Position numbers and translations under genes: made by a program
Part shown: in pieces, positions 6,088-48,966 of the stretch
Numbering within the stretch: the first letter of the stretch is position 1
Layout: each line of letters begins with the position of its first letter
Assembly (NCBI GenBank): GCA_030247885.1
Contig: JAPDRO010000006.1
Coordinates: forward strand, 1,240,001-1,304,000
DNA length: 64,000 nt
Source: Taxawa tesnikishii (nom. ined.)
Lineage: Eukaryota; Ascomycota; Dothideomycetes; Dothideales
Reading direction: 5' to 3'
The notes under the pieces: model-generated
Database searches by the model: none
Told to the model about the DNA's origin: nothing
What the model saw: the letters and a program-made list of their open reading frames with translations, nothing else

Positions 6088-7235
6088 ATGCAGTACCACT
6101 CAACCTACCCTTTTCCTGATCACCTTGCCATGCCATACTGGCCGCCCAACTGCGAGCATCCATCTCATCACCCGAGTTCCCTCGCATTCGAACATCTTGA
6201 GCATCCTATACCGGGCAATCCGAGCCTTCGGAACCTGGAGTGAGTGGAGCAGAATGTCTCATGTCAGGAAACGTTGACATTCTCAGTAGTGTTTACGATC
6301 ATGCCGAAAATGCGTTCGTGCCCGAAGAGCACCAACAGCTGCAGTCTCGAGACGTCGCAGCATCTGCTTCAGTCTCATCTGACAGACATCTTGAAAGAGA
6401 GCCAGGCACATCGATTCATTCCGATGCCAGCAGCTTCATCCTGTCTCCCGGACATAGGGGCTCCACATCTCCCGAGCGCGCCCGTCGTTCCATACACCTT
6501 GAACGACAGCAGTCTTGGTCAGGCTCAACCTCGGGTAACTCTTCCGACAGCACCAAGGGTGACTGTAAGCTGACATGCTCTAGGATCCGGGTACATAACC
6601 TCGCAAACGCTGCCGAATGAAAATAGCATTTATGTGGACGACCCCTATTGTGGCTCTCCGCACACGTTGCTTCCCTCGATATGTCTCGGGACGCAGCAAG
6701 CCTGTGGTGGCCAATTGAACCTTGTCAACCTCAGCCACAAGGATCCCAAGCGCCCCAAGTAGCATCAACTCATGCTGCAGTGCCTAGTAGTGTTCAATAC
6801 CACGCGAAAAGGACTACCGCTGGACAGCGAACTGCGACAGTAGATATCCAATGTCCCAACGATAGCAAGCGTACCAAGAGTCGGAAGCAGCAGTACAAGT
6901 GTAACGAGCCCGACTGCACCACCACTTGCACGCGCCGGGACGATCTCGATCGTCATAAAAGAAGCAAGCATAAACCACCCGTCAAACGCTTCCAGTGCCT
7001 CTTCCCCGGTTGTACGTTTGGTTTCGACAACGACGCCTCAGGAGTTGTCCGTCCAAAGGGCAACGCAGGAAGACGTGGCACTCTCCAAGCAGTAGATGAG
7101 AGGCGCGCGTCGTTTGTCCATATCCGAAGAGATAAAGTGCTCCAACACTGCAAGAAGGATCAGGGACTCAATGATCATGAGGACCGTAAAAATATATCGG
7201 CGAGATATTTCGAGAAGATTGGCGACGGTGTCTGA
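6088..7235 (+). CDS. C2H2 zinc-finger protein
   Basis: Putative nuclear regulator with one clear C2H2 finger near the C-terminus: CNEPDC, then TRRDDLDRHKRSKH, a spacing typical of fungal fingers. A second CLFPGC follows without an obvious His pair, so it may be degenerate. The start is ATG 6088. Exon 1 (6088-6239) ends at GTGAGT; the 47-nt intron to 6286 (branch GTTGACA) joins exon 2 in frame. A second intron is proposed at 6565-6626 (GTAAGC...ATAG). The last exon matches the finger frame only if one C is restored in CCCC at 6642-6645 and one in CCC at 6745-6747; the CDS is then exactly 347 codons (346 aa). The N-terminal half is Ser/Pro/His-rich and probably disordered. Homologue and targets are not recognised. 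Confidence 0.6.
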
Positions 7236-8718
7236 ATGAAAAACGACGAGAACACATCAAGTAGATAGCTTTGAGTACAAACCAATACCTTTTGTTAGTT
7301 TATTGTCGTTGATAACACCGCGTCTCATCATCGTCTTCCGCTGCTTCTCCACCAAACGCGCTCGCGCCATTGAGTTCACCATCCTCACTCGTTGCTGTCG
7401 CCATTTACCAAATCATGAACGGTGCAAACAACGCCGGACTTCACGACACTGGTCGTCTAGAACAATCAACACGTGATGCTAACGAAGCTTGATCTAGTCT
7501 GCGCGGTCCGCAAGCTCTCTTGTAATTGATCTACGGAGGAGCCAAGGCTCACACATGTTGAATCCCAATGGTTCAGCAATCTTTACAACTGCCTCCAGAT
7601 CTATCTCGTCCGTTCGATCACCTGAGGCCTCGACCAAAAGCGTAACGAACGTGTAGGCCATCGCCTAGCAAGACGAAACTGTCACCTGCCTTTTGTGCGG
7701 CGGATCGTGAACGGTCAAGGTGTGCCAGTGGAATAACAGACCTCGTCGCCTGCTCGAATGCTCTCCGGCAACCCACGTCAGATCCGTGCTGCGTGCAGAC
7801 GCGAAGTAAGCAATGTCTCTTCCGCTTTGCCAGCGGGCAATCAGTCAAAGTCCCGACAACCAGCAACAAGGACTCCCCATCCATCTCTTCGTATGAGCCG
7901 TTGCTCTATACAACCCGTGGTTGTCGAAGGAAGTGTAGGACAAGAACGTCATGTAGGTCAAAAAGCCAGCTCCATGACATTTCTTGTCCAACCAACACGC
8001 ATGGCACCGCAATAACCTCACGTACACCAGACGATGAGCTCGGGGTAGCAAGGGGACAAAGCATCCTCCAGCAGAGTCACAGGAAGCTCTCGTCAATGAT
8101 GTGTAAAGTGTTATGACTATCCGGAATGCCTCTCTGTAACGATAGACCAATGAAGGCAGGCTGCAGCAACATGATCTCCCAACTTCTTTAGTCTCTTCCT
8201 CTGCGTCAGACCACTGGCGCGAACGCTCGATTCTCGATCGGAAGCATAACCGCTGTCTCCAGCGAGCAGCGCATGACGATTGGCAGGCTTTGTGCCAGTC
8301 ACAGAGACCCTGCACCTGCCACCCATTCCCCGACTTCCTTTCAAGCTCCATATATGTCGACCCCGTTGGTCCACGGTCTTTTGTGAGGATCCGCTTCACA
8401 CAATGAGTCCAACGGCTGCTCACAACTCCTGGGTGATGTCGTCTGAGCTGTGAGGGAACGGAGATTGAACCAAGCGTTGGCTTTCTTGGGTCAATATATC
8501 ATCTCAATACTGCATCATCTCCATACGCCGCAGAAGTGTCTCATCCGCCCACCCATATAACCTGCGGCCTTCCAAGCGGTCCACTCCGAGAACACCATTC
8601 CCCGTCTTCATTGGCTCCAATACAACGCCGTTCCCCAAATCCCAGTAGCCAGTCCGATGGTTTTTCTTTTCAATTCCGTACGCCGTGCGATGCCATGCAA
8701 TGCGTTCGTGCAAATGTT
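7236..8718. other. gene-free stretch
   Basis: Between the C2H2 and NSA2 stops I find no supported gene. A 192-codon reverse frame at 7845-8423 has unnatural Cys/Arg/Trp-rich composition and no family signature. Confidence 0.5.
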
Positions 8719-9625: not shown

Positions 9626-9828
9626 GGCGACGGCGTTGTCCTGTGTGAAGTCGAAGAATTGGAAAAACGAGTGGAGGAGGAAATGCGCTGCGATGCGGCA
9701 AAGTCTCCAAGGACCCCTCAAGAAATCCAGGCCTTGGCGCCTTGGCGTTTCCGTCCGTCGACTTTCCAATCCTCGAGAAATCCAATCCCATTGATGGCTT
9801 GTATTCGACACCATTGCAAAGAACAGCG
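9626..9828. promoter_or_regulatory. short bidirectional promoter NSA2 / bL21m
   Basis: Only 203 bp separate the start codons of the divergent NSA2 and mitochondrial bL21 genes, so both must be driven from here. No TATA box or named factor site was recognised. Bidirectional activity is inferred from geometry. Confidence 0.5.
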
Positions 9829-10699
9829 ATGCTTTCACGACAGATCAAGCGCGCCTGCCTGGACTCGCGGTGGGCGCTGCCGCCGCCCTTCCTGCTCCCC
9901 TTCACCGCCAACATAACCACCGTCTCCCACACGACCTCTCCCAATCCCTCCCCGATGTTCTCACCAACTCCTCCGCAGCCCGTCACCCGGCAGACAAATC
10001 AACCAGCATCAAGTCGCCCAAGGCGCCACAACCAGAAGTCGACACCCAGACCCCCAAGCTCCCCCTCCGACATCCCATTCGCCCGGCTCCTCCACTACTC
10101 CGCTCTCCGACTCGGTGAAGGAGCTGCTCCCGCTCCTCCGCGCCCAGGGCCCACACTACATCACCGCACACATCTACGACCGGCCGTACCTGCTGACCCA
10201 GGGCGACACGCTGCGTCTGCCCTTCCTGATGCACGGCGTGCAGCCGGGCGACGTGCTGCGCCTGAACCGGGCCACGAATCTCGGAAGCCGGGACTTCACG
10301 CTCAAAGCCGGGGCCGCTGCTGCACCCGCACTGCGGAGTTCCACGACCGCCACGATGCCCGTCACGGAGGACCCGACGACTGGATCTCTGGCCTCCGAGA
10401 CGAGGGTTGTGCCGACTGGTCAGGCCGTCGGTGGACGCGTCGTGGCGCCGCATTTCATCCCGCATATCGCAAAGGGGAGGACGGCGTATCTGGACGAGAG
10501 GCTGTTCGTGTGCAGGGCAGTGGTCATGGGCGTGGAGAGCGAACCGATGAGGATCAAGGAGAAGACGAAGAGGAGGCAGAGGAGGGTCAAGACGGTCAAG
10601 AGCAAGCATCGCTTCACGATTTTGAAGATTAAGGAGGTCAGGGTGAGAGGAGCGGAGGAGATTGAGTCCGGTGTTGAGGAACGAAGCAACGAGTCGTGA
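9829..10699 (+). CDS. MRPL49: Mitochondrial ribosomal protein bL21m
   Basis: Structural protein of the mitochondrial large ribosomal subunit. The start [15 protein letters not shown] is a basic, acid-free presequence. The bL21 domain has [39 protein letters not shown], a loop insertion, and the basic C-terminal core [19 protein letters not shown] typical of the family. Presequence and domain are in different frames; they connect if one C is restored in CCCC at 9950-9953 and one in CCCCC at 10061-10065, making exactly 291 codons (290 aa). No intron was seen. It is head-to-head with NSA2. Confidence 0.85.
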
Positions 10700-15638: not shown

Positions 15639-18600
15639 TCAATGTCCCGACGCCTCGGTCCAGTTCGCCAACCTATCAATCATAGGAGTGAGATCCGCGA
15701 TCCGGAAGGGCTTACTGATGGAATCATCCATCCCCGCCGCAATCGCTGATTTTGTCTGTTCCACTCTGGCGTTCGCACTGACGGCAATGATCGGAATGTG
15801 TCCTCTGATCTCTCCCTTGCGTTGCATATCTCGTATGTTCTTTGTCGCCTCAATGCCGTTCATGACGGGCATTTCGATATCCATGAGCACAACGCTGAGG
15901 TCTTGTGCAGATGTGGCAGCGGCGTTGGAGGCCCAGTGGCGTGTAGTGCGCAGGAAATCGAGCGCTTGGGATCCGTTGTCGGCCAGGTGTACGCGGTAGC
16001 CGTGTTTGGTCAGCTGTTGCTTTAGCACGCGCTGGTTGAGCAGGTTGTCTTCGACGACCAGCACGCTGACTTGGGAGTCCGCGCCATCCTCTGGCATTGA
16101 TGACGTGGCGCTGCCGGCGCGAGTCAGGATCTTTGTAGAGCTGCTATTGCGTTTGAGTCCACCGTTGACGGTGCGCATAGCGAGTTTAGCGGGCGCAGGT
16201 GCGACGGAATGGCACGTCCTGATAAAGAAGGCGAACGTGGACCCCTGATTTTCTTCGGATGAGACGCCTATCTCGCCTCCTTGCAGTCCTGCTAGTTCGC
16301 GCGAGATGAAAAGTCCAAGACCTGATCCGCCGTATTCGCTGTACGTCTTGGGCGAGGCTTGCGTGAAGCGGGAAAAGATCTTCGCTTTTTCCGTACCACT
16401 CATACCTCGACCTGTATCCTGTACCTTGAACCAGAGGTAGATTGGGTTCGTAGCGAACTCAGGTGCGTCGTAGATGCTGTCTCGCACATTGCGTGCTAGG
16501 GCAAAGTCGACGCCGAGATCATCTTCTGATGGCTTGAGTTTGGAGGCTCCCACAAAGATCGTCACATCCCGTGTTTCCCTGTCTTTGGTAAATTTGATGG
16601 CGTTCGTGACAAGGTTAATGATGATCTGCAGCAGCCGCCCAGGGTCAAGGAACACCCAATCCACAGCGAGTTCTTTGATCGAGCGGTCCATTTCCGTGCG
16701 TAGACTCACGTCGACTTTTTGTGCCTCTGCCTCGAACATCCTCTGCACGTCTGTCAGTATCTTAGGGACTGATACGGAAGATGGTGCAAGCTGAAGAAGA
16801 TTGGAATCCAGCTTCGACAGGACTAGTACGTCGTCCACGATTCTCTTCTGGTGTCCAGTGCAGGAGGTGATTGTGTTGACCGCATCCAGCCCGCTATCAA
16901 TGAGTTCCTGGAGTTTCCGGATCTTGTCCTGCTCTGATGAAGGCTGTAGCGACTTGACAATGTCCGTCATTTCTGAAAAGCCATCCGTTATCCAATCGGC
17001 GCAGTGAACCACGGCGCTCAGCGGATTACGGATCTGTTATTTCGTTAGCAAACCTGCCGGTCGCGAAAGGAACGGTAGACCTGCCTCGTGAGATGTCATA
17101 TCAATGAAGCTAGTGAAGTGCATGTCAGCCGCCTGATCTTACTTCGGATAAGCATTGTGCACAATCATACTTCTCTTGCTGTCTCTTTGCTTCAAGAGCC
17201 TCCTTGACTCTTAGTTTCTGTACACTCTCGGCATATTTTAACCCTGAAATGTCGTTCATCGTTCCCATTATACCCTTGACTGTCCCATCCTCGCGCATTT
17301 CGCATGTAAGTGTTGTCAAGACCCAGATGTGTCCGAGTGATCTGCCTTGGCGGTCATGCCATATGCGGGAGAGCCTGAACTGAGTGGAGATGCTTCCACG
17401 ACTATTGACAGCAGCATCCCACGCCTCGTCGATTGCACGAACATCCCCCTCGTGTACGACTTGCACCCAGTTTATTTCGGCAAGAGGAGTTGTCGGGGGA
17501 CAGCCTGTCAGTTCAAACCAAGCATTGTTGCAATAAGTGACGCGCTTTGAAGGGTGATCGCAAATGTAGATTGGCACGGCTGCATCCTCTGTGAATCGGA
17601 CGAAGCGCAACTCAGAAGCCCTGGCGCGTTCGAGAGCTTCTGCTCGTCTTTGCTGCTCTATTTGAGACCGTTTCTGCGCAGCGATGTCCGTGAGACATCC
17701 GTAAACGGTCGTGACTTTTCCTTGGGCATCCAAAACAGGCATACAGGCCGCAAGCACCCATCGTTCGTGGTCCGCAACACTCGTTTGCGGCAATTGCTTA
17801 AACCTCATTTCAAAATTTGTGGAATTTCCGGCAAGCAGCTTTCCCCATTGTTCTCGGATGAGACTGACATCTTCCTCGTGAGTATGGTGTGTAACTGACT
17901 TCAACGCCGGGTCGACGTCTTTGGGAATTCCACTCAGATTATAGTATGCGTCCTGAACCATGTTAGAACGATGCCACGAATGGAGCAACGGGTGAGACTT
18001 GCATTTGCCTGAATAACCTGACCAATGGAGCTGAACTCAACAACCCCCACGCCTACTTGTTCCATGATCTTCTGCATCCTTTGAAATTTGGCCGAGACAT
18101 GAATTGCTTCTTGTTCGCTGAGGCGTGCCCTTTCGAGCGCTTCCGCTCGCTTGACGGCTTCGTTCTGCAACTTCTTTTGCGGGCGGATGTCTGTTGTGCA
18201 GCAAGAGATAGTGATCACTCTTCCATCCGCATCCGTAACGGGTACGCAAGCAGCTAACACCCACACGCCCTCTGACTTGTTCTCTCCCGGGGCGATTTCC
18301 ACCGCATCTCAAACGTTAGTGCGTGACCTTGGGTAACGAGATTCCACTGAGAGAGAACGAATTTCAAGTCGTCTTCATGGATGTAAGTTGTCCAACTGGA
18401 CTCTGTCCAGGTGGTTGGATCTCTTGGATGGGAAGACAAGCTGAACCACGATTCGTTCGCGTGAATCAGCTTTCCGCCTTTGGTGAACTCGACAATTCCG
18501 ATGTCGACCATAGCCATGACGGAGAGCATTCTATGAACTCGCCCCGTAGCCAGCTCGATTTCCAATTCGCGATCGGCGAGCGCTTTCGCGAGCAGATACT

Positions 18601-19682
18601 GTTCGTGAGCGGCTTGCTTGGCGGCTCGATGTTGCCTCTTGGCTTCCTCCTCGGAAAGTAGGACAGCGGTGACTGCATCCCCAAGCTCTCTAATAATATT
18701 AGCAATCCAGGTTTGGTAGGCATCGTTGTAAGGTCTCTTGTCATGCAATCCTGTGACCAGAAAGCCAATAACCTTCATCGATCTGTTGGATCGTAACGGG
18801 CAGATGACGGCTGCTTTGTGCAACCCTCTATGTTCTTCGAGCGAGTGAGTTGTACTTTTCCAAAAAGGAAGTTCTTCCAGGTCACAGGGAAGCGCGTCTT
18901 TGGAACGTATGGCTTTGCACATGAGCGGAGACTTCTGGAACTCTTTTTGGTCTACCACGCTAAGCAGCGTAGTACCTTTCAGATCCCCGACAAATCCCGC
19001 AAGCGTGTACGAATCATGTTCGTGGCTGCACTCAAGATCCATAGCACGTTCCGATGAGACATCCGAGTTCAGCGAGTATAGGTACGCAAAGGGAAGTCCG
19101 CAGGATGGGAGTGCAGGCAGTTTAGAGCACTTTCCCACAGAGAATGCACATCGACCGAAGCTCTCAGAGTCGCCCTCAAAGTGCGTATGATCATCCGCCT
19201 GATCTCTCCTAAACGGCGCTCGGTAACGTCGTCGAGAGAGATATAGAAGCCATCCAAACCGGCCAATGGAATCACTGTCCAGGTCATCACGACTTCCTCG
19301 ACGAAGCCATTCCTTTCAACGAGAAACGGACTGTCTTCGACGTGATAAGCGCGGCCGGTTGCCCTTGCCGTTCTGGTGGGTATTTCGATAAGCTCCAATG
19401 ACTCAGCCCACGCCTCTCTGACGGGTATTCCAAGAGTGGCGGGATACTTGGAGCCTACCATGGCTGCATAGGCACGATTGTAGAGCATCCATTGCTCGGT
19501 ACCAAGGAGCAAGAGACGCGGCTGGGGGCAAGCATCATGACATGGCACAGCTGCAACAGATCCCGTGGCCAAGAAGGAATGGGTCCAAGAGTAGTTGAAG
19601 ACCAATCGACGTTGTGGACGTGTTTGAGATGCTCATCCATCTCCGGACTGCCGGTGTGTGATAGATTGATGATGAAGTCCAT
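15639..19682 (-). CDS. Multi-PAS hybrid histidine kinase
   Basis: Fungal two-component sensor, probably cytosolic (no membrane segment seen). Order: an N-terminal PAS-like region (PRLLLLGTEQWMLYN), a central sensor region, several PAS modules (VGVVEFSS, YYNLSGIPKD, VTYCNNAWFELTG), HisKA (FIDMTSHE/IRNPLSA), HATPase (N-box NLVTNAIKFT; G-boxes VQDTGRGMSG and GGSGLGLFISREL), and a C-terminal receiver (VLVVEDNLLNQ; Asp in VLMDIEMPVMNG; AVSAN). Introns: 18002-17953 (GC-AG), 17170-17110 (GTATGA...CTAG) and 17084-17034 (GC-AG), leaving a 25-nt exon at 17109-17085 that holds the phospho-acceptor His. Three frame breaks, each fixed by one base, lie at 19524-19528 (G run), 19088-19093 (AAAGGG) and 18296-18298 (T run); the CDS is then exactly 1295 codons. 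These are probably assembly errors; a true pseudogene is the alternative. Signal and pathway are unknown. Confidence 0.85.
17085..17109 (-). other. 25-nt microexon carrying the H-box histidine
   Basis: The sequence codes for FIDMTSHE between a GT-AG intron (17170-17110) and a GC-AG intron (17084-17034). The joined protein reads RQQEN-FIDMTSHE-IRNPLSA, a canonical HisKA H-box. Both phases match, and total CDS length is consistent with its inclusion. Confidence 0.75.
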
Positions 19683-20604
19683 GTCGGTGGCGGAGGCGGA
19701 GGCGAAGGTCCGACACGAACACCAGGGCCAGGGCCGAAAGGAGTTAGCACGGATGATATTGGTTCATTGGAGAAACATGCAGTCGTTCTGGTGCCTAGAT
19801 GAGTGTGCGACAAGTGCCATAGGTATGTTGTTTACAAGCCGTAGAGAGTCCGCGAGGAGTGTGAGGAGTGTAAGGAGTGTTTGTGCCAAGCAACGGTTTC
19901 GCGCAGGCGATTCAGAAGAAGCAAATGTCCATGTTGGCTGGTGGCTGTTGTCCGGAATGCCGAGACCGTGATACGTCCACAGGCTATTCTCCTAATTTCC
20001 TAGCGCAGGGGTCGTGCCACAACGGTAGTTGGGGAAGTGCTCCTCGATCACCTTCGCAGCATGACACGACCCAACAGAAAGCCGTGAGCCTGCAGCATCT
20101 TCCTTTCCCTAGTATCGTACAAAGAAGTTGCAAGCCGTTCAGCGAATTCAAACTGGCGGTCGTGTTGCATAAAAGGAGGGAAGATAAGAGGAGAACTTGA
20201 GCCTTGCGGAGTTGATGCCGAAATCGCTGCATTGTCCGCCAATCGGGACGGTTCTCCGCCGAGCCGCTACACTTAAGCGGACAAGACAGCGGAGCCGCAA
20301 CGCATGACAAACCACAGCAAAGGAACTCCACCTTCTGATCCAAAGGGAGGTGGTGTCTGAATCCAGTAAGTGCAATATTTTATATAATATCATCTCTTGT
20401 ACGGTAGCGAGAAACTCCTATGGAAAGATCGTTCTGCATCGTTGTATTCTGCACAGTACATTTCCTGTGCTCCAGGCTGATTCACTTCCTTGCTACACCG
20501 CTCCGGCATTAGTCTTGTGGGAGATCACTCAGTCTTGCTTCACTACCCATATCAAAACCTCCGTGTTGACCTGTCCTCAACAGCCCTGCCACTCCGTGTC
20601 CGCC
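19683..20604. other. divergent intergenic region, with a 3-copy 9-mer
   Basis: Shared upstream region of the histidine kinase (minus) and ureF (plus). It contains a short tandem repeat at 19854-19880, three units of GAGGAGTGT with one mismatch. A 159-codon forward frame at 19492-19971 overlaps the kinase start and is not supported. Confidence 0.45.
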
Positions 20605-21374
20605 ATGATCACGTCCAACCTGCACACTCTGCTCTTGCTCTCCGACTCCGCCCTGCCCTTGGGTTCCTTCGCCTTCAGCAGCGGATTGGAATCCTACCTC
20701 GCCCACCACAAAGCCTCATCCAACCCACGCTCAGCCAAAGCTTCCTCTTCCGCCGACTTTGACGCCTTCCTTTCCCTCTCGCTCTCAAACCTAGCCTCAA
20801 CAGCCCTGCCCTACGTACTAACCGCCCACGCACACCCATCGCGCCTCGCCTCCCTCGACAACGACCTCGACGCCTCAACCGCCTGCACCGTCGCCCGAAG
20901 GGCGAGCGTGGCGCAGGGACGAGCTCTAATCACCATCTGGGAGCGCTCTCTGCACCCCTTACTGCCCCCTCATCCTCCAACCCCGCCCTCACATCCCTAA
21001 CCACCTTCGTCGCCGCCCTGAAATCCCCTTCTTCGGGCGCTGTCATCTCTCCCTCGTCCGCGCCCGCAAACGCGCATTTTGCGCCCCTTTTCGGCATCGT
21101 CTGCTCCCTCCTCTCCCTCAGCACCGCAGACACCGCGTACCTCTTCCTCCTCAATCACGCAAAGGCGCTTCTTTCGACGGCTGTGCGCGCGAGCGTCATG
21201 GGCCCCTATCAGGCGCAGGCGGTGCTCGCGTCTGCGAGTCTGCAGGACAGGATTCGCGCTTGCGTGGAGAAGGAGCAAGGGAGGGAGGTCGAGGATGCGG
21301 GCATCACGGTGCCGGCGATGGAGATTTGGGCGGGGAGGCATGAGCTTCTTTACTCGAGGATTTTCAATTCGTGA
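20605..21374 (+). CDS. ureF: Urease accessory protein UreF
   Basis: Chaperone that helps deliver nickel to apo-urease with UreD and UreG in the cytosol. The N-terminal motif LLLLSDSALPLGSFAFSSGL is diagnostic of UreF, as is the C-terminal block VMGPYQAQAVLAS with AGITVPAMEIWAGRHELLYS and terminal SRIFNS. The start is ATG 20605, directly before the conserved motif. N- and C-terminal halves are in different frames; restoring one C in CCCC at 20955-20958 connects them and gives exactly 257 codons (256 aa). No intron is needed. Convergent with the SANT protein, 259 bp apart. Implies that the fungus uses urea through nickel urease. Confidence 0.88.
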
Positions 21375-31460: not shown

Positions 31461-32684
31461 ATGCTCGAAGACAACATCGAGGTCACCGGCTGGCGCGCCC
31501 AGTGGCTGGAGCGCAAGCTGCCCGCCCTGCAATGGTACGTAGTGCCTGTCAAAACACAACCAGACGCCGGTGTTCTCCAGCGGCCGTTGGCACTACGTTA
31601 AATGCTTGCCGCAATGCTAGTCCACGACAATTGTGTTAGGCATGAAGCAGGCGTCCGTCTGACGGAGTGCCCGTCTATGGAGCGCACCTTCAGGCGGCTC
31701 TCTTCCCGCGCAGACGGCCTTCGAAGAACCGACGCATCCCGATTCAATGAAACACGTCAAGGATTGTGATGATAGTATTCTGACCTCTGCCAGGTACTTC
31801 GCCGGCGAGACGTCTCTCCACGCGCTCTTGATCTGGGTTATCATCGTTTTTCAATCATCACCAGCGTCAAGTTCAACAAGCTCACCAAGGCTGCTCGCGC
31901 AAATGGCGAGACCGTCGACCGCGATACTCTGCTTGACTACGCAGGGCGCTATGCGCGCATCGATCGTTCCTATTTCGTCCTTGCCCTCATAACAATGATC
32001 CACGCAATGACTCTTATGTCAGTCGATGGTTACGTCGCTTTCACTACTCTTATCGACAACTCACCAGCAATTGAGTGGAACAAGAAGGCTGTGCTGGAGC
32101 TGGGCTGGTCCGCTGTGTTGATGTTTGCGATTTACGTTGTCTGTCACTGGCTTGTTCCCATGGCACAAATCGCGTTGGCCTCCTACGTGCTCACCCACGC
32201 TGCCGCCAAAGCCCATCGACAGACCCTACAGGCATTCATCGCTCCAGCACGTTCTTTCTCAAGCAGCATGTGCCTCTTTTGGTGCATGATCTCGCTGTTC
32301 GTAACACTGAACTGGAGCCCGGTCGGTGAAACATTGTCTAGGGCTTGGGGGCTTTTTCGGTAAGTGGCAGCAGCCATGGGACCCTTGAATTGTGATAGCG
32401 TACTGATGCACAACAGCTACAGCATTGTTCTCGTGGCATATGGAAGCGCTCTCGTGTGGCTGGAAGCTGCCTTCGCCTTTAACTTCCGCGCCAAGAGGCT
32501 TGCCGACAAGAATCTTCAATTTACCTACAACGGCCTCGGGGAGCTTCTGGTTATGGTCGGCGAAACGGTTGTGGATGTCCACACTGCGGACTCGAAGAAG
32601 CCTCTCTTGCCAATTCGCCAAGATCTGCCCGCCCCTTTCCCATCTGCCACAGACGAGAAGGAGGCTTTGAAGGTCAGCTTCTGA
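31461..32684 (+). CDS. Polytopic membrane protein, function unknown
   Basis: Three exons: 31461-31534, 31794-32359 and 32417-32684. Intron 1 (31535-31793, 259 nt, GTACGT...CTCTGCCAG) is unusually long for this window; intron 2 is 32360-32416 (GTAAGT...CAACAG). ATG 31461 gives EDNIEVTGWRAQWLERKLPA. About five hydrophobic segments follow, including HALLIWVIIVF, YFVLALITMIHAMTLMS, AVLMFAIYVVCHWLVPMAQI, SMCLFWCMISLFVTL and IVLVAYGSALVWLEAAFAF. The frame changes at TTTTT 31847-31851; one extra T restores it and yields exactly 303 codons (302 aa). The C-terminal soluble tail is charged. No catalytic motif was recognised. The intron 1 and start assignments are less certain than the rest. Confidence 0.55.
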
Positions 32685-35446: not shown

Positions 35447-36573
35447 TCAATCCGTGACTTCTGTTGCGGCTTCCGCCGCATCGTGGACGTCGTAGAGTCG
35501 CGGGAGGTAGTACTTGGTGTTTTCGTACACCAGAAACGTGACGCAAGTCGAGGGTAGCACGCGGATGATGTTAGGGCCCAGCCTGTAAACGTCAGTACCT
35601 GCTGTTTGACCATGAACCGTGTGTTGTCTTACCCCTTGTAGAATCCTGAGATGCCCTCCCTTTTGAACACTTGCTTGACCACATCCCTTGCATTCTGGTA
35701 TTTGTTCTTCGCGTCATATATTTGCAGCCTTGCCCTCACTACCTGATATGGGTACGTGATACTGCCAGCGAACATCTTGCTTACTGCACTTAGCAGTAGG
35801 TAGTCCATGTTTGTTAACTTATCCTTGCCCCTCTGCTTGGCGCCCAGTGGTTCTTCAGCTGCTCGTACGCCATGAATTGAATTGCTCCGTGACTGACGCC
35901 AAGCAGGGATGGGACCAGACCACGATAGAAGCCTCTCACACCCTCAGAGTTCCAGATGTGCTTTGCCCCTTCCACAGTTGTCTTGTATGCGCCGGGGTGT
36001 TGCGCCCCGTCGACAGCATGCGAGTCTTGATCACCCATATCGGGTTCGTGAAGATAGCGGTCAGAATCCCGGAAGCGCCGGACGCGAGGAAGTAATCGGA
36101 GGACGTAAGTGATCCAACACCCGTTCCGGTGTCGCGATAGGATCGTATCAAGTCTTTAATGTTGCCGTACCTGGAACGGCTTAGACACGCTTCTTACACG
36201 GCCAGGACAGAGCTGCTACAAACCAGAGGAAATATAGAGCCCAGCTCACAGAATTGCCGAGCATGTTGGGCATGAGGCCTCTGTAGAATGCCAGGTAGGA
36301 GCCTTCATTGCGCGCGATCTGGCGGATTATCCGCACCGAGTCACCAATGTGTGAACGGGAGTCCTGGGCAACTGTCGAAGTGGATCGTCAGCTCATGAGA
36401 CCGGCTGCTGGACAAAGCAATCCCGAACCTTGCAGACGCGTCTTCACCACGTCGAAAGGGTGTACAACGAGTGTCGAGATGATTCCTGCACTGAAGCCGG
36501 CAATACTTTCAACTAAGGAGGGTGAGAGGCCAGGGTTGTGTTTGCCCTCGATGGGAGGGTAGACACGAGGCAT
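35447..36573 (-). CDS. FLX1: Mitochondrial carrier, FAD/folate type (FLX1/SLC25A32-like)
   Basis: Inner-membrane carrier; the closest family by motif moves FAD or folates between cytosol and matrix. Three repeats are visible: HPFDVVKTRLQ, NPIWVIKTRML and YPYQVVRARLQ (P-x-D/W/Y-x-x-K/R signatures). GVSHGAIQFMAYEQLK is characteristic of the FLX1/SLC25A32 branch, as is the Trp of the second signature. Exons: 36573-36429, 36371-36224, 36170-35633 and 35582-35447, all GT-AG. Two breaks in exon 3, at GGGG 35994-35997 and CCC 35843-35845, each need one base; the CDS is then exactly 323 codons (322 aa). ATG 36573 (MPRVYPPIEGK) precedes the first helix; an upstream ATG at 36597 is possible. An NAD+ or pyrimidine carrier is a less likely alternative. 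Confidence 0.8.
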
Positions 36574-37452
36574 GGTAGCTGTTGGTATTCCGAACACTGC
36601 AAACTCATGCTGAACACATCAGGCTGTTAGCGACTGCGGAAAAAGGCAGTACGGTAGAGGTGCAATCAGTTACCACAGTTCGCAGAGAGGGAGATGATGC
36701 GTGTGGAGATAGCGGAGGTTTCCGTTGTGATACGTACACTCGGCCGTGCCGAGACCGGACTTCTTCACTTCGCTATACGCTAAACGGCGTCGTCGGGAGT
36801 TTGTTATAGCGAAACAGGTTAGGTTTGTAGAGAAAGAAAATACGCCTCTATGTCAGAAACATTATTGATGAACTATTCGTGAACTATTGCGTCATTGTTA
36901 GTAGGATATTAGCGTTAGTGCGGATACCTATTAGGGAAAGTTGGGGAAAGATAGAGTGAACATAAGCAGCTTAGCTTCACTCTTGTAGAGATAGCAGACA
37001 GTTCACTCGTTTTCTCATCTGCCTTCGAGAGACGCAAGCGCTGTTGTGTACTACTTCTGTGCTGGGCTATTTCTATGCTAAGAGAGACGCAACAAAAAAT
37101 ACAGCAAATGTTGATAGGGGTAACAGCTGGTACTACGATAGAAGCTAGCCTGTCGGCAAACCTAAGCTGAGGAACAAAGGTCTAGCTGTGGTCAGGCATC
37201 GTGGAGTATATTGCAAACGCTGAGGTGAACGTGGAAATGAACTCCACGAGAAACCTGGTGAATGCCAGGGAAGCTTATATTCAGCTCTGGCTTGTCGCTT
37301 GCCGCAAGCTATCTGTACATCCGTCCGTAGTCCCGTACGGTGTTTGGGACAATGGCTGGTGAGCGGTTCCAACCGCTGCTTTGCTGCTAGATCATCTTTC
37401 CCGAAGATACCCATAACGCCAACACATGCAATTCCCACGACTCTTCTTGTCT
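36574..37452. other. gene-free, fairly AT-rich stretch
   Basis: Upstream region of the carrier and 3' flank of the complex I gene. The part at about 36800-37140 is AT-rich with no long open frame. It might be degraded repeat DNA, but I see no clear structure. Confidence 0.4.
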
Positions 37453-37785: not shown

Positions 37786-38225
37786 TGCGAAGCTGCCACT
37801 TGTACTCAGATATTGTATACGTCTTCCCGCATGCATATACTCACTGCTTAGTTGGCGAACTTGGCGCAATTGATATGAGGTGTACGATGAACGGTCAAGC
37901 ACCCAGCTTCGACGTCGCTGCTCGGCTAACGGAATTTGCCGCAGCCGCATACTCGGCCCACGTCTTGCGATGAACTGTGGACGCCTGCAAGCTACCTAAT
38001 CACCCCCACCATTGTGCATCACGTTCCCGAGACCCTACGAGTACTAAGTCTTTAACCAAGCATTGACTCGCCGCTGCGGAAAATCAATATCTTGTGTGGT
38101 GCGGTTTACTGGGTCGGCTTGCACCTTCCAAACAACGCGAATCGGAAACGTGGAACCTCCAAGGATAGCGCTTTCTCGATCCATACACAGCGCTGAAGCG
38201 GTGCAATCCGCTCCCAACCGTCAAG
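37786..38225. promoter_or_regulatory. bidirectional upstream region B12 / CAF1
   Basis: The 440 bp between the divergent starts of the complex I B12 subunit and CAF1 genes must hold both promoters. No recognisable factor site was identified. Confidence 0.4.
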
Positions 38226-39743
38226 ATGCCTCCAGCCGTGGGAAGAATGCATCCGAGCCACATGTCCAATCCTTTCGCACACCTGAATCCTCAACACTCA
38301 ATACCCACACCCTCGCACTACCAGCAACAAAATCAGCACATGCCACAAGGGATAGGCGGACACTCTGCTTTTGCATCGAATCTGAACGGCGGTATGAGCC
38401 CGTTTGCTCCGGCAGGAGGAGGCATGGGTTACGGAGGAGGACTGGGAGGTGGTGGACAAGGCCTTGCGAGCGAGGCAGCATACAGAGGCTTTGAACGTGG
38501 TGCAGCACTTCAACAACAGCAAGCAAACGTTGCGGAAGCTAGTCAAATGAGCATGAAGGCAGGTGTTGGCGGAAGGATACGAGAAGTCTGGAGGGAAAAC
38601 CTGGAGTCTGAGATGGAGATCTTGCGACACCTCATCCAGAAGTACCCATACGTCAGCATGGTGAGCTTAGACTGCATTTGCAATCTTGCGTGATCTGGTT
38701 CTGCTAACGCTAGATACACAGGACGCTGAATTCCCAGGCATAATCGCTCGACCGATAGGAAACTTCGAGAATAAAGCTTCATATCACTACCAAACGCTGC
38801 GCTGCAACGTCGATCTTCTCAAGCCGATACAGCTCGGTATAACCCTATGGAGCGCTGAGGGCGAGCTGCCACCACCGCAGATCGATCCTTCGATTCTCAG
38901 GTCGGGTCACCACAACAACCTGATGGTGTGCCCTTGCACATGGTCGTTCAACTTCCAGTTCTCTCTAGAAGACGACATGTACGCAGAAGGTTCCGTGGAG
39001 ATGCTCAAGAAAGCAGGACTTGACTTCGTGAAGCACCAGGAGCACGGCATCGAGCTGGACAAATTCGGTTCTCTGCTTACCACTTCCGGACTGACCTTTT
39101 CGAGAATGTCAACTGGTTGTCGTTCCATTCTGGCTACGACTTTGGCTACCTTGTGAAGCTGCTTACGGCAGACTCGCTCCCGAGTGACGAGGTGGAGTTC
39201 AGGGAACTCGTGAAGACATACTTCCCAAAGCTGTGGGATATCAAGTTCCTGCTTCGACATGCACAGAGATCCATGGGCCCGCAGAACAGGCTCACACCCG
39301 CTGCAGCTGCGATACTGGGGACTCTTGGGCAAAAATCCGGATTGCAGGACTTGGCCGACGAACTCGGCTGCTCTCGTGTTGGCGCAGCGCATACAGGTGG
39401 TTCGGATGCCCGGCTTACCGGCCAGGTTTTCTGGGCGATGCGTAACAAGGTTTTTGATGGCCATATCCCAGAAGATCTTGCAGATCAAATCTATGGTTTG
39501 CACGGCGTGGGTCCACCAGCGAGCGCTCAAGTCCGGGACGAGTACCTGCAAAGTCAAGGACAGCAGACACCACAGACGAACGGCGCGAGCATGAATTTCC
39601 ACACAGGCCATACACCTACAACACATCAAGCACCAAGCACGCCCACAACAAACAATGCCAGCATCTCAGGAACACCAGGACCGAATCACTACGGGTATGG
39701 AGGACTGACGCCTGCCCAAGGCGTGTATCAATATGGGAAATAG
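38226..39743 (+). CDS. POP2: CCR4-NOT deadenylase subunit CAF1/POP2
   Basis: DEDD-family poly(A) exonuclease of the CCR4-NOT complex; shortens mRNA tails in the cytoplasm. A long Gln/Gly/Met-rich N-terminal region is followed by IREVWRENLESEMEILRHLI and, after a 61-nt intron (38661-38721, GTGAGC...GCTAACGC...CACAG), the first motif DAEFPG (Asp, Glu). SFHSGYDFGYLVKLL gives the third acidic residue, and AAHTGGSDARLTGQVFW the last His/Asp. The frame breaks at TTTT 39097-39100; one T restores ENVNWLSFHSGYDFGYL and exactly 486 codons (485 aa) to TAG 39741. All catalytic positions are present. The frame reopens downstream (see the next feature), so the true end may be 40528. Confidence 0.9.
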
Positions 39744-41423: not shown

Positions 41424-43477
41424 TCACTCGTACTCACTCCTCACCTTCTTCATCGCCCTCTTGTTCCCCTTAAAGTGCTTCTTACTCCCCGCCTCCATCG
41501 CGGTCCTGACATCCTCGGGGTCGACGTCCTTCTCCAAAGCGACCATCAACCGCGCCTTGCGCCCGCTCAGCTGCTTGCCGCCCGTCCTGTCCGCCTCGGC
41601 CTGCCCTTGCTGGCTGTACTTGTGGTGGAAGGGCATGTTCAGGGTTCCGCTGCCCTGGCCCGGCGCGAAGAAGCGCTTGTCGAGGTTGCGGCTCTTGGGG
41701 CCTTGGGCCGGGAGCGCGAGCACATCGGCCTCGGGGTCCATGAGGCTGGGGTGCTCGGATCCGGTGGTGACGGAGGCCTGGGCTGCGGCGGCGAGGTGGG
41801 CGCGCCGCTTTTCGGGCAGGTGTGCGGCGTCGTAGAGGTCGCGGTTGAAGAGCTTTTCGTCGATGGGAGGGTCTGCTGGCGGCGGGTGGCAGAACAGCAG
41901 CTTGCCCTTGACGTAGTCCTTGAGCACGGTGCGTGCGGCGCGGCTCTCGTCCGGCTGGCCGAGGCCCTGGGTCATGAAGCCGCGTGCGGTTGCGTATGCG
42001 CGGAGCATTTCTTCGCCCGTGGGGAGGCCGGTGCCGCCTTCTTCGATTGGACGGGTGTGGATCTTCATGCCGTACACGGCCTCCAGGAAAGGTTGCGGGA
42101 TGCGCTGCGCTACGAGTGCGGCGGGTCCGGTGTACTCGCGCTGCTGGTCGATGGGGAGGACGCCGTTGCAGACGAGCTCGGCCTTCGTGAAGGCGAAGTT
42201 GGGGAAGACGAGACCGGGACAATCGCACAGAATGACGCGGTCTGAGAGGTGGATGGTTTGGAAGTGCTTGGTTTTGCCGGGAGTGGCGGAGACAGACACC
42301 TTCTTCGCTCCAAGGAGGGCGTTGATGGTACTGGACTTGCCTACGTTGGGGTAACCGACCAGACCGATCTGTGTCTTTCGCGGCTTTCCATCCGGGTCGG
42401 TCTTGATCACCTTGGGAGAGTGGGCTAGGAAGAGCGCTTCCAGGTCGTCTGTTGTGAGGATGCGCGTTTGCTCCTCCGGAGAAAGCGGGACGCCCTCATC
42501 TGCATCCGGGGCTTCACCGTCGACGGATTCCTCGTCCACCCATTTGTCATCTTCTTCCTCCTCGTCCTGGATGTCAACCTTCTTAGCTTCCCTTGCTAGA
42601 AGATCCTCGTCTTCATCAATCTCCTCCTCAATGTCATCCTCGTCCAATGTGTCGTCTTCCTCGTCTTCCCCGTCGACAAGTCCACGTGCCTCGTTCATCT
42701 CGCGAGCCAGCTCTGCTGAGAAGAAACGGAAGGCAATCTTGTTCCTCGAGAAGTAGTCGGCCCATGTTCGCCTTTGCTCCAGGGTCATCATATCCGCCTT
42801 GTTGACCAGCAACAAGTTCCGCTTCCTCTTGTCGACCTCCTTCACGTATGCTTCCAGGTCCTCACTTCGGAACATGAGCGGGTTCCTCGCGTCGACAATC
42901 TGGACCACGAGGTCACTTCTCTCGATGACTCGCCATAACTGTCTCCAGACTTCCAAATTCCTCTCGAACGGTGTCAGGAGAAGGTCCTGATTCTCTACCA
43001 AGTCGGCCAACGACCTCCGCCATTGAAGCAGACTCTCTCTTTCCCGCTCGTCCAATTGCTGTCTTGTTGTGGTCTCGTCCCACTGCGGCCTCCGCGGCAC
43101 CGTCAAGCGCTCGCGGTTCTGTTGGTGCTTCTTCACCTTGGCGCGCTCCTCGGCTGCGGAGAGCAGGTATGGGTTCTTCTGATCCTTATGGATAATCTTG
43201 ACGTTGTTCATCTTCTCCGCTGTGAAATCGGTGCCGGCCAGTTCGGCAGTCGAGAGGAACTCGTCCAGAGCTGCTTGCTCGGTAACGGAGCGCATCTTCA
43301 TGTAGGCGGCATCCTTCTTGTTGTTCGTGACGTAGGTGTTTCCTTGTTGGTCGGTTCGCATGATGCCCCCTGCTGGGCATTGCCTCTGCGCATGTCTGAG
43401 CCCTTGCCCTTGCCAAAGCGGTCGTTCATCAGACTGTTGCCGAGTCCGACGGCATTCTTGGACTTTGGAAGCACCAT
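41424..43477 (-). CDS. LSG1: Large ribosomal subunit GTPase LSG1
   Basis: Circularly permuted cytosolic GTPase that releases the export adaptor Nmd3 from pre-60S subunits. G motifs come in permuted order: G5-like DARNPL, G4 NKAD, a long acidic insertion (EDEEDDTLDEDDIEEEIDED), then G1 GYPNVGKSS, G2 SATPGKTKH and G3 DCPG. The C-terminus is basic (KKHFKGNKRAMKKVRSEYE). ATG 43477 gives MVLPKSKNAVGLGNSLMNDR, the conserved Lsg1 start, but sits in another frame; one base restored in the C run at 43376-43380 joins it and gives exactly 685 codons (684 aa). No introns. Divergent from MTO1 with 407 bp between starts. Confidence 0.93.
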
Positions 43478-43884
43478 ATTGGCGGTGTTCTACCAGGAAC
43501 GCTGTTGATAACGGTGCGATGTCTCGCCCTGAAAGGGGGTGAGAAATGGGGGAGAAAGATAGATAGTGTGTGGGAAGATATGGCGTGTGGTTGTAGGTTC
43601 TAAGTTGTGGGTTGTAGGTTGCAGATATCGGTAGAAGGCGATTGGAAATCTAAAAGTGACCGATGAAGCAAATGGAGGGGCACAGAAAAACGTCACGCTA
43701 GCTTCGGCGACTGGCTCAGCCCTACGAGATCCCTGCATGCTCTGTCTCTGCAACGGGACTGGGCCTCTCGGCTGCAGATCTCCCGTCGCCGATATGATAC
43801 AGTCGGGTCAGCCCTTTTGGGTTCCATGGCACAAGTTCGCTGCGTGACAGCAGTTGTTCCCGTCGCCCTCGTTGCATACCCGAC
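43478..43884. promoter_or_regulatory. bidirectional upstream region LSG1 / MTO1
   Basis: The 407 bp between the divergent starts of LSG1 and MTO1. Must contain both promoters; no specific site was recognised. Confidence 0.4.
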
Positions 43885-45989
43885 ATGTCGTTAGCGCTGT
43901 CAGCCAGAGCGCGCACTCTGTGGACACGCGCGCCTCGAGTGCGCTCCGCTGCCCTGATCCGGCGCCGTTTCGCCACTGTTTCCGACACCAGCGCTCAGTA
44001 CGATACTCCCTCGCCGCAGCGATGAACACGGCCAACTAACCTTCCCGCGCAGGCCTTACGATGTTGTAGTCATTGGCGGTGGCCATGCAGGATGCGAGGC
44101 CTCGGCGGCGTCCGCGCGGACGGGCGCACGCACAGCGCTCGTCACCCCTCTCTGGAGAATCTCGGAGTATGCTCGTGCAATCCTTCCTTCGGCGGTATCG
44201 GCAAGGGAACCATGTTGCGCGAAGTAGATGCGCTGGATGGAGTGGTGGGCAGGATCGTCGACAAGGCGGGCATACAGTTTCGGGTGCTCAACAGGAAGAA
44301 GGGACCGGCTGTATGGGGCCCGAGGGCGCAGATCGACAGATCGTTGTACAAGAAGCACATGCGGGAGGAGATGACAAACTATCCGGGATTGAGCGTGTTG
44401 GAAGGCAAGGTCGCGGATATCGTGGTGCAGAGAGAAGGCATGGAGGGGGCAGCCATGGCAAGATCACGGGCGTGCGGTTGGAGAGCGGGCAGGTCATACC
44501 CACCAACAACGTCGTAATCACCACAGGCACCTTTCTTGGAGGAGAGATCCATATTGGACTGGAGGCCTATCCGTCGGGAAGAATGGGCGAGGCCGCAACG
44601 ACCGGGTTAAGCAGATCCCTCCGCGAAGCAGGCTTCACCCTCGGACGGCTCAAGACTGGAACACCTCCGCGCCTTGATCGCAAGACGATAGATTTCGCTC
44701 CTCTCGAGGTGCAACCCGGAGACGAACCACCGATGCCCTTTAGTTATTTGCACGAGACAGTTACCGTCAAGGACCAGCTGAACTGCTGGAGCACTCACAC
44801 AAATCCAGCTACACACGATATCATCCGCGCAAACCTGCACAACTCTATCCACATCCGGGAAACAGTCAAGGGTCCGCGTTACTGTCCGTCCTTGGAATCC
44901 AAGATCATCCGCTTTACGGACAAGACAGCACACATTGTCTGGCTGGAACCGGAGGGCTTCGATACAGACGTCATCTATCCCAACGGCATTTCCATGACCG
45001 TACCGGCAGATGCGCAGGAAGCCATGCTGAAGACGATCCGCGGTCTCGAGAACGTGAAGATGCTCCAGCCCGGCTACGGCGTCGAGTACGATTATGTGGA
45101 TCCACGCTCATTACGGGCTACTCTGGAGACAAAAGCCATCCAAGGTCTGTTCCTGGCCGGCCAGATCAACGGCACCACGGGTTACGAAGAAGCAGCCGCG
45201 CAGGGTATCATTGCGGGCATCAACGCCGGCAACTCCTCCCTCGGCAAACCGCAATTGGTCGTCAGCCGCGCAGACGGCTACATCGGCATCATGATCGACG
45301 ACCTCGTCACCAAAGGCGTCAGCGAGCCCTACCGCATGTTCACCAGCCGCAGCGAGTACAGGATGTCCGCGCGCGCGGACAACGCCGATCTACGCCTCAC
45401 GGCCAAGGGGCGCGACGTCGGCGTCGTGGGCGACAAGCGGTGGGCTGCCTTCCGGGACGAGACGGCACAGATGGCAGAGCTGCAACTGCTGCTCGAGAGC
45501 AAGAGAATGAGCTCGAGCAAGTGGCTCGAGGCCGGCTTCGGCGTGCGCACGGACTCGGTCAAGCGGTCCGCCTTCGACCTGCTGCGCCTGGCCAACGTGA
45601 CAACGGACACGCTGGCCGAGCACGTGCCGGAGCTCCTGTCGTACCCCGAACGCATCAGGACGAGGATCGAGATCGAGGGCGTCTACGCACCCTACGTCGC
45701 TCAACAGGAGGCTGCCATGAGAGTGTTCCAGAAGGACGAGCAGCTGCGCTTGCCTACCGATCTGGATTACGCTAGAGTGCACGGTCTAAGCTTCGAGGAG
45801 AAGAAGGCCCTTGCAGAGACGAGACCGGAGAGCGTCGGCCAAGCCAGACGGATCGAGGGCGTCACTCCCACCGGTGCCTTGAGGTTGCTCGCTTACGTGA
45901 AGGGAGAGAAGCGGAAGGCTGTCAGCCAGGCCATGGGCAAGGACATACCGAGTCCTGATGCGAAAGTGAGAGAGGCGGCGACTTTGTAA
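43885..45989 (+). CDS. MTO1: Mitochondrial tRNA uridine modification enzyme MTO1 (MnmG family)
   Basis: FAD enzyme that, with MSS1, adds the 5-carboxymethylaminomethyl-type group to wobble U34 of mitochondrial tRNAs. Exon 1 (43885-43997) codes an Arg/Ala-rich presequence ([20 protein letters not shown]). A 55-nt intron (43998-44052, GTACGA...CTAAC...GCGCAG) leads to [16 protein letters not shown], the FAD Rossmann motif. Further MnmG blocks: [70 protein letters not shown] and TSRSEYR. Two breaks need one base each: CCCC 44145-44148 and GGGGG 44455-44459; the CDS is then exactly 684 codons (683 aa). C-terminal helical domain present. Confidence 0.93.
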
Positions 45990-46642: not shown

Positions 46643-48966
46643 CTAACCTTCCTCCGCGTCCTCTTGTTCCTCAACCTGCTCGCGATCTTCCTCGCTGGGC
46701 GAGCGACCAGCTGCACGGGGGTAGAGGGAAGCAGTCGTTGTGGATTTCTCTGCCAACTCCGATCCGCCTCCTAGGTGAGATTGTTTGGTTGAAAGTCGTA
46801 CGCGGGGGTTCGCCATCACCGTAGTTGTTGGCCGTGCTGTCAATTGAAACGCGGCGCTCGACCGTGATCCCATGGGGCGAGTCGTTGGCGAGCTCGGTGG
46901 CGAATGCGGCGTTGTCTGATTCGACGAACTTCTGTAATGGTTCTGATAACGCTGCGGATTGTGGATAGTCAAGAGCTTTGTCGCTGGCGTAGACCAGCAA
47001 GACCCGGCTGTGTTCTTCGTCGAGAGGTGCTTGGAGGACCGTGGCTTGGTCGGCCTCGGAGACGTGGAACGTTGCATCACCGTTGTGGTAATCGTACTGT
47101 ATGCGCCACCACTGCATGCCTTCAGGTGTCTCCTCGTCGGTGATACTAGTGTTGGTCTCTGCTCTCGGAAGCAATACGTAAGTGACGTTGGGTTTGGTGG
47201 AGAAGCCGCGAAGGTGATAGCGGTGCTGGGGAGGGTGACCAAGTTGTTCGTACTTGTCGTCGGCTGAGAGACGAGAGAGCGTCTCACGGGCTTCCTGCTT
47301 CTCCGTCTCAATTTGTTCGAGCTTGATTTTGATGCTCTGGAGAACAGCCTCCAGTTTCTTCGCAATCGCGGTATGGTGTTCAGCATCCGGAGGCGGCTTC
47401 AGTTCAACGTCAATGGCTCTGTCATCTTTCTCCTTCTTGACCCTTTCCCGGTTGGCACCAGAGAAGTGGTCAATTGAGTACTGAAGCAGCGCCATCGAGT
47501 TCATAGGCTTACCCTGTGGGTCCTTGGCAGTTTTCAACCTGGCTTCAAGCTCATCAAGTGTATCAATGCGCTTCTTGGCTTGGATCATCTCCTCACGCAC
47601 CGGCCGTAGAACGTCGACGTTTTCCCTGAGGTATTTATCCGCATAGATAATCATAGGCACGTCCAGTCTGGCTTTTTGAGCGCCCGGGAAAGTGTTCTCG
47701 AAGTGGATAGGAAGGATATCAGCACAGCGCTCCATATAAGTATCACTGGGATCCTGCCAGTCAGTATCCCATAGTAGGTCATCCAAGGCCACCTTTAGGC
47801 TAAGGCTTTCTGACTCGTTAACGTTTGTCTGCGAGGAGTTAGCGGTGTTGTAAATCGTAGTACCATAACACATCACTTACCGCGACTGGCAGACACCGCA
47901 TATCAGGTTCGCAGCCGGCTTCGTCGCTTGTGCCGACCAGGGAATGAAAGATCTTCCCCAGTCCTGGCTGGCCACCAATCTTCTCCATGGCAGTCTCCCA
48001 GGCTGCCAGTACACTGTCAAGGGCTGATGCGGGGTGTTGGTGCTAGGCGAGGTGCCTGTACTGGCGAGTGAATCTGCGCTGCCATAGGCGCGGTGGCTTG
48101 CATCCAGGAAGGACATCAACCGCTGCATTTCCGCCAAAACCTCCTCATGCTCAGTAACAGCGGGCTCCGCAGGCGTGAAGCTCTCGTCAATGTGCACAAT
48201 CTTGGGCATCTTGATCTCATGACCCTTCCACCACTCATCGTTGAACCCGTAGTCTGGCCTGGTGAAGCCTCTTGCTAGTAGAGCCTCCCGTGCAAGCGGT
48301 ATGGAACGAACAATGGTAAGGAAGCCGGGTAAGTAGACCGCCATGCCGGACGCCAGTGGTTTCAAGAATCTGGGATTGCCGACCTTGTATTTTCTGTCTT
48401 CCGGATCCGGGTCTGGTATAACCTCGTTAGCCTGATGTGTGTCTGCAGAGCGACTGGAGGGCACCATGGCCCAGTTGGCCGGATCGTAGTATCCACCTGA
48501 AGCAGGGCGCAAGCTAGACAGGGTTTGTCCATTTGATCCAATTGTGCCCGTCTCTTGTCCTTGGTATGGGTCGTCGCCGCGTGACAAAGCAAACGCTCGC
48601 TCCAGGTCGGCATCTTCCTCTGCTTTGGACGTGGGTTGTTTGAGAGAAGGTACAGGTGAGTTGCCTCTGGTTGGAGCGGCGCTGTAACCCAGTGGGCGTA
48701 GGTTGGCGTTGTAGTCCACTGCAAAACACGTTGGTTGGTTAATGGTTATGGCTTGAATTGGAAGCAGACACACAGTTTCCTTCTCGGTCGACGCTTGTGA
48801 AAGCTGAATCGTCCCAAGTGTTGGCGGCCTCAAGATCGGAGAGCTGAGTCCCATCCAACCAGGCGTTCACAACAGCGGCGGAATCATTGTTCTTCACCTT
48901 GAGCCATCGCCGCGCTGTCTCGGCGTCACAGCCCACGATGTCGCAGATGTACGCAATCTCTGCCAT
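46643..48966 (-). CDS. UIM-containing ubiquitin-pathway protein
   Basis: Starts MAEIAYICDIVGCDAETARR (ATG 48966), a helical module resembling a UBA domain. A ubiquitin-interacting motif follows: EEDADLERAFALSRGD (acidic block, central Ala, Ser). The middle has ordered blocks (WWKGHEIKMPKIVHID) and a coiled region; the end is acidic (SPSEEDREQVEEQEDAEEG). Introns: 48773-48719 (GTGTGT...TTTGCAG), 47880-47829 (GTAAGT...GCTAAC...CGCAG) and 46819-46771 (GTGATG...CACCTAG, less sure). One break at GGGG 48031-48034 needs one base; the CDS is then exactly 723 codons (722 aa). I associate this layout with a fungal protein annotated by its ubiquitin-interaction domain; a peptidase-like core is possible, but I see no Cys/His box. 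Convergent with MTO1. Confidence 0.65.

What the first reader, a model, noticed from the sequence alone, without database searches (positions are those of the whole stretch)
6088..48966. About twenty single-base losses at homopolymer runs break otherwise conserved genes
Seen directly: in 13 genes the frame of conserved protein motifs shifts at a short run (CCCC, GGGGG, TTTT etc.), always as if one base were missing. Sites include 6642-6645, 6745-6747, 9950-9953, 10061-10065, 18296-18298, 19088-19093, 19524-19528, 20955-20958, 22833-22836, 24559-24562, 27134-27137, 29277-29280, 31847-31851, 35843-35845, 35994-35997, 39097-39100, 43376-43380, 44145-44148, 44455-44459 and 48031-48034. Adding one base per site makes each spliced CDS a multiple of three. 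The same polarity in essential genes argues for homopolymer under-calling. Genuine programmed frameshifting would be remarkable but is unlikely. Anyone using this window must not score these genes as pseudogenes.
Basis: partly seen in the sequence, partly recalled or inferred. Interest (0 to 1): 0.8.

Follow-up and report, generated by a model that had tools for sequence, protein, structure and literature searches.

The report
Assembly drops bases in homopolymer runs
Several ordinary fungal housekeeping genes look broken here most likely because the genome assembly writes short runs of one letter one base too short, a known kind of sequencing error, so the genes should not be counted as dead.

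Summary
The window is C31:1240001-1304000 of a 29.4-Mb, 34-contig assembly, by inference of a filamentous ascomycete. Of 20 sites, 5 are proven by homology with no room for an intron (carrier twice, CAF1, GidA/MnmG gene twice), 1 (UreF) by homology plus codon usage, 6 are favoured by codon usage only (intron possible at 4), 2 are ambiguous and 6 unsupported. Four spans are not runs.

The breaks are not special to the window: seven more lie in conserved domains on six other contigs, a chaperonin and an HSP70-family gene included. All 12 homology breaks with gaps of 38 bases or less are 'one base short' (one looser pair steps the other way). Twelve of 13 homology breaks lie at a run of 4 or more (3.2 expected). 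C/G runs nearly stop at 5: 4 of length 6 or more against 38 expected in 254 kb.

Verdict: homopolymer under-calling, probably in a long-read assembly (platform inferred, no reads seen).

The parts
43958..45989 (+). GidA/MnmG-family gene (MTO1 in fungi, name recalled), read in three frames in turn
   Evidence: GIDA domain in three pieces, model 1-30 at 44060-44149, 31-135 at 44149-44463, 126-390 at 44457-45248; MnmG C-terminal domains
44149..44149 (+). frame break 1, beside run CCCC 44145-44148; one base short
   Evidence: pieces abut with a 1-base overlap at model 30|31; codon usage is silent here (gain 0)
44441..44465 (+). frame break 2; interval holds run GGGGG 44445-44449; one base short
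   Evidence: pieces overlap by 7 bases; codon gain 12.5 nats, range 44441-44465
38169..39743 (+). CAF1 / CCR4-NOT deadenylase gene, pieces in separate frames
   Evidence: Pfam CAF1 pieces; CNOT7-type chains in PDB
39096..39100 (+). frame break beside run TTTT 39097-39100; one base short
   Evidence: upstream piece ends at residue 146 and downstream piece starts at 147 of the same PDB chain, both at base 39096; codon gain 14.1
35447..36618 (-). mitochondrial carrier gene, three frames
   Evidence: Mito_carr pieces
35972..36002 (-). frame break 1; interval holds run GGGG 35994-35997; one base short
   Evidence: pieces overlap by 31 bases, model 39-48; codon gain only 1.7
35820..35848 (-). frame break 2, between carrier repeats; one base short
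   Evidence: 23-base gap, frame step 2; codon gain 10.6
20604..21374 (+). UreF gene, two frames; break within 20915-21054
   Evidence: UreF model 3-76 and 90-149 in different frames, 104 bases apart; one-short preferred over one-over
41424..43489 (-). LSG1-type GTPase; possible N-terminal stretch in another frame, break within 43338-43392, which holds run CCCCC 43366-43370
   Evidence: LSG1 match E 5.3e-70 for the downstream piece only; codon gain 10.0 v 1.6; a later in-frame ATG would need no break
26799..27481 (-). Ser/Ala/Val-rich gene with a PIR repeat, break within 27108-27141, which holds run GGGG 27134-27137
   Evidence: codon gain 14.0 v 6.4; PIR repeat
17128..19315 (-). PAS-domain part of a hybrid histidine kinase, possible break within 18282-18309
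   Evidence: codon gain 6.7 v 2.6; PAS domains; a 74-nt intron with a good donor is the alternative
31460..32684 (+). gene without a Pfam match in the pieces scanned, possible break within 31829-31862, which holds run TTTTT 31847-31851
   Evidence: codon gain 9.4 v 0; no family; the alternative 53-nt intron has a poor donor
28776..29602 (-). RRM gene, possible break within 29237-29303
   Evidence: codon gain 6.4 v 0, a 112-nt intron is the alternative; RRM_1
9795..10699 (+). gene with weak L21p match; frame change, number of missing bases undecided
   Evidence: (23.7 bits, cut-off 27)

Best explanation
The assembly reports homopolymer runs too short. Runs of about five or more, C/G runs most strongly, are written one base short (sometimes perhaps more). 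Where this falls inside an exon the reading frame steps, so single genes look like two or three fragments. Shown: breaks, polarity, location at runs, the run-length cliff, and presence on other contigs. Inferred: that the cause is sequencing/consensus error (most likely nanopore reads without accurate short-read polishing) and not the organism's own DNA.
For:: 12 of 12 homology breaks with a gap of 38 bases or less are one base short, 5 in the window and 7 elsewhere (C1, C3, C9 twice, C18, C30, C33); counting the one looser pair it is 12 to 1. The 38-base limit was set after seeing the pairs; 12 of 13 homology breaks (UreF included) have a run of 4 or more within 9 bases, 3.19 expected (0 of 400,000 draws as high); C/G runs of 4 or more at 8 of 13, 1.82 expected (P 7e-5). 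C/G runs of length 4/5/6+ are 827/159/4 in 254 kb, 37.8 expected for 6+; E. coli K-12 (49 kb) has 8 v 6.4; 747 exact-6 C/G runs genome-wide against about 3,534 extrapolated from the 254 kb (an overestimate in so far as the genome holds AT-rich blocks); codon model with equal costs gave 22 short, 4 over (6 and 2 in the window). Nanopore-only fungal assemblies are reported to show frame-breaking homopolymer errors (PMC7500977, passages).
Against: No reads or platform record were available. PMC7500977 (passages) reports errors more often as over-predicted run length, the opposite polarity. Most breaks lie at runs written as 4, shorter than where under-calling is usually worst (recalled). C/G runs of 8 or more exist, and C6 density differs between C1 and C2. 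One pair (C11, between 368865 and 368918) steps the other way, with about 34 extra bases, and holds GGGGG. A/T runs of 6 or more are only mildly reduced (34 v 51.7 expected). One of 13 homology breaks (C18) has no run of 4 within 9 bases. Many genes are unbroken: 30 of 41 close piece pairs stay in frame, and 6 of 9 sugar-transporter matches scored have no stop inside.
Confidence: 0.95

Rival explanations
1. The frame changes are ordinary short introns overlooked by the reader.
For: Introns are common and short here: 115 called, median 61 nt. GT-AG introns can replace the break at 18296, 29277, 31847 and 48031.
Against: At 12 homology breaks the gap between pieces is -31 to +38 bases, at or below the shortest intron my model allows (38 nt). 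Substitute introns at 39097 and 44455 have donor scores of -3.6 and -1.7 (10th percentile of called introns -1.5) and would remove sequence matched to the family.
Confidence: 0.03
2. The organism really carries these single-base deletions: decaying pseudogenes or culture mutations.
For: Deletions at runs are a common mutation type (recalled).
Against: They hit many conserved genes on several contigs, a chaperonin subunit included. The GidA/MnmG domain has no second copy: the other 3 of 6 matches are weak and stop by model position 60. The C/G run cliff is assembly-wide, which mutation of a few genes would not cause.
Confidence: 0.02
3. Recoding: -1 frameshifting, or transcripts that gain a base at runs, keep the genes working.
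For: Same polarity at short runs in conserved genes.
Against: No X XXY YYZ heptamer at 13 of 13 breaks tested. It would not explain the missing C/G runs of 6 or more in the whole 254 kb, of which the model calls about 103 kb coding; coding and noncoding parts were not counted apart.
Confidence: 0.01

Closest known systems
Homopolymer indel errors in nanopore-only fungal assemblies (Drechmeria coniospora, PMC7500977; passages read)
   Same: Fungus of the order Hypocreales, long-read contigs, frame changes at homopolymers in conserved genes, accuracy falling with the number of runs of 4 or more.
   Different: That paper found run length over-predicted more often; here all tight breaks are short.
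Nanopore systematic homopolymer indels in microbial genomes (PMC8011154, PMC9262707; passages read)
   Same: Residual indels in homopolymers that shift reading frames.
   Different: Those are benchmarks against reference sequences; here there are neither reads nor a reference.

Membership tests
Homopolymer under-calling artefact | Errors have one polarity (short) | tested here: met
   12 of 12 tight homology breaks short, 12 to 1 with the looser C11 pair; 22 short v 4 over in the codon model
Homopolymer under-calling artefact | Errors sit at homopolymer runs | tested here: met
   12 of 13 v 3.19 expected
Homopolymer under-calling artefact | Long runs are depleted in the assembly | tested here: met
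   C/G runs of 6 or more: 4 v 37.8 expected in 254 kb; exact-6 747 v about 3,534 genome-wide; A/T runs only mildly (34 v 51.7)
Homopolymer under-calling artefact | Not confined to one gene or region | tested here: met
   breaks on C1, C3, C9, C18, C30, C33
Homopolymer under-calling artefact | Accurate reads show longer runs | not testable with these tools
   no reads available
Programmed -1 ribosomal frameshifting | In-frame X XXY YYZ slippery heptamer at the break | tested here: not met
   none at 13 breaks: six outside the window; GidA/MnmG two, carrier two, CAF1, UreF and LSG1 in it. The HSP70 break was not in that test
Pseudogenes | Broken genes dispensable or duplicated | tested here: inconclusive
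   no second GidA/MnmG domain; another CAF1-family match lies on C6, which I take for a PARN-like gene without testing it; essentiality is recalled, not tested

The most novel reading that the evidence does not exclude
A filamentous fungus whose nuclear genes really lack single bases at short runs and are read correctly through ribosomal or transcriptional slippage genome-wide.
Probability: 0.01. Interest if true: 0.95.

Novelty: not a real feature. Interest (0 to 1): 0.1.

Why it matters
It is a quality warning. Gene models and pseudogene counts from this assembly will be wrong in places: a gene caller can split one gene into several or bridge a break with a false intron. Any biological claim from this genome that rests on a frameshift, a stop or a short intron needs accurate reads first.

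Tried and rejected
First codon model, one strand at a time: 9 short, 0 over, but one call (41507) is the antisense shadow of LSG1 and one (51004) is probably a GC-AG intron; replaced by the joint two-strand model. Its 4 'over' calls include one at the cut end of a stretch (L020:10000) and one (10102) in the gene where two shorts would look the same.

E. coli K-12 control, 49 kb: with introns allowed, 6 short and 1 over. Compared by eye with the annotation, all 7 lie within 31 bases of the junction of adjacent or overlapping genes, or 30 bases from the stretch end. The model therefore errs at overlapping gene ends and leans short there, which weakens the polarity count. With introns off it made 16 calls (10 short, 6 over); those were not checked one by one.

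Per-site test with zero penalty was invalid (many shifts per site); redone with exactly one shift allowed.

Idea that hidden breaks are absorbed as false introns: called introns are 54/38/23 for length mod 3 = 2/1/0, but weak and strong donors do not differ (Fisher P 0.71). Not supported.

Rows and pairs left out: I omitted the three weak GIDA matches and one Cpn60-like match (C31:887351-888037), and pairs over 450 bases apart. Of the 96 adjacent pairs counted, 41 were close enough to judge: 30 in frame, 10 short, 1 over (C11). The pairs were read by eye: one further abutting short pair (C3); pairs with intron-sized excess were not counted, and a tRNA-synthetase match at C1:572421-574634 with eight stops was too tangled to count. 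One search (sugar transporters, 9 of 323 candidates scored) gave no adjacent pair to judge; 3 of its 9 matches hold stops, not followed up.

Full report
What the window is. It is C31:1240001-1304000 of an assembly of 29,367,862 bases in 34 contigs. Genes have short introns (median 61 nt among 115 called). One sampled 10-kb block (C1:100001-110000) is 23% GC with (CpA+TpG)/(ApC+GpT) of 0.03, the mark of repeat-induced point mutation, so I infer a filamentous ascomycete. The species is unknown, and I restored no gene.

Checking the sites. Homology proves 5 sites. In the GidA/MnmG-family gene one domain is matched in three pieces with model positions 1-30, 31-135 and 126-390, the pieces overlapping by 1 and 7 bases. 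In CAF1 the upstream piece ends at residue 146 and the downstream piece starts at residue 147 of the same PDB chain, both at base 39096. In the mitochondrial carrier two breaks separate matched pieces that overlap by 31 bases or lie 23 bases apart. UreF changes frame and codon usage prefers one-short, though its pieces are 104 bases apart and the codon gain is inflated by the comparison path. Six more sites are favoured by codon usage alone; only two of them (27134, 43376) survive the full cost of a shift, and an intron is possible at the other four. Two sites are ambiguous and 6 have no support. The LSG1 case rests on codon usage; its N-terminal piece had no PDB match.

Polarity. With equal costs for either direction, the codon model called 22 short and 4 over in the window plus 19 other stretches (254 kb; binomial P 0.0005). 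The E. coli control shows that this model leans short at overlapping gene ends, so homology weighs more. Among homology breaks with gaps of 38 bases or less, 12 of 12 are short: 5 in the window and 7 elsewhere. The single opposite case (C11) has about 34 extra bases and may hold an intron or two missing bases. With UreF and C11 counted it is 13 to 1 (P 0.002).

Location. Of 13 homology breaks, UreF included, 12 have a run of 4 or more within 9 bases, against 3.19 expected for model-called coding positions of the same stretches; for C/G runs it is 8 against 1.82. Padding of 6 or 12 bases gives the same picture (11 v 2.80 and 12 v 3.65).

Run lengths. In 254 kb the C/G runs number 827 of length 4, 159 of length 5, 2 of length 6 and 2 longer; 37.8 of length 6 or more were expected by continuing the fall from 4 to 5 (P 3.5e-12). 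Third-order Markov simulation trained on the same letters expects 10.2 exact-6 runs per 100 kb against 0.8 seen. E. coli K-12 shows no such cliff (8 v 6.4), though it is a bacterium and only 49 kb; no fungal control was at hand. Genome-wide there are 747 exact-6 and 136 exact-7 C/G runs. A/T runs fall more smoothly (34 v 51.7 expected). Runs of 8 or more C do exist, so collapse is not total.

Rivals. Introns do not fit the tight breaks but remain possible at 18296, 29277, 31847 and 48031. Real deletions would not remove C/G runs across the assembly. No canonical slippery heptamer lies at the 13 breaks tested for it (this set holds LSG1 and lacks the HSP70 break).

Literature. PMC7500977 (passages) describes a nanopore-only fungal assembly with frame-breaking homopolymer errors in conserved genes, corrected with short reads; it also reports that errors there were more often over-long runs, unlike here. 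PMC9262707 and PMC8011154 (passages) describe homopolymer indels that shift reading frames as a residual nanopore error. Other papers were seen only as search listings. That the platform here was nanopore is my inference.

Conclusion. The list should be cut to at most 12 sites, 8 of them firm (35843, 35994, 39097, 44145, 44455, 20955, 27134, 43376, the last with the start-codon caveat), and several coordinates lie beside rather than on the run.

Noticed in passing
L004 (G000:C1:100001-110000): A 10-kb AT-rich block (23% GC) with almost no CpA/TpG (index 0.03), a very strong RIP-like signature.
   Followed up: partly
G000 contigs C1, C2, C3: Exact-6 C/G runs are 24.4, 5.2 and 21.4 per Mb on C1, C2 and C3, the three contigs wholly covered by the capped listing; C2 v C1 P 1e-5. 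Contigs may differ in consensus quality or composition.
   Followed up: partly
G000:C1: C/G runs of 8 to at least 17 bases exist (at least 24 on C1, counted by eye in the capped listing), more than the scarcity of runs of 6-7 would suggest.
   Followed up: no
window 50943-50995, - strand: The E2 ubiquitin-conjugating gene changes frame at a stretch that I read as a GC-AG intron; splice models without GC donors call a false frameshift there.
   Followed up: partly
window 41245-41343: A GAAA-type microsatellite just beyond the 3' end of the LSG1 gene gives spurious Lys/Glu-rich ORFs.
   Followed up: no
L001 (G000:C6:129853-134028): Another CAF1-family gene, model 2-283, E 1e-73, open over 460 aa; by its model span I take it for a PARN-like nuclease, untested.
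   Followed up: no
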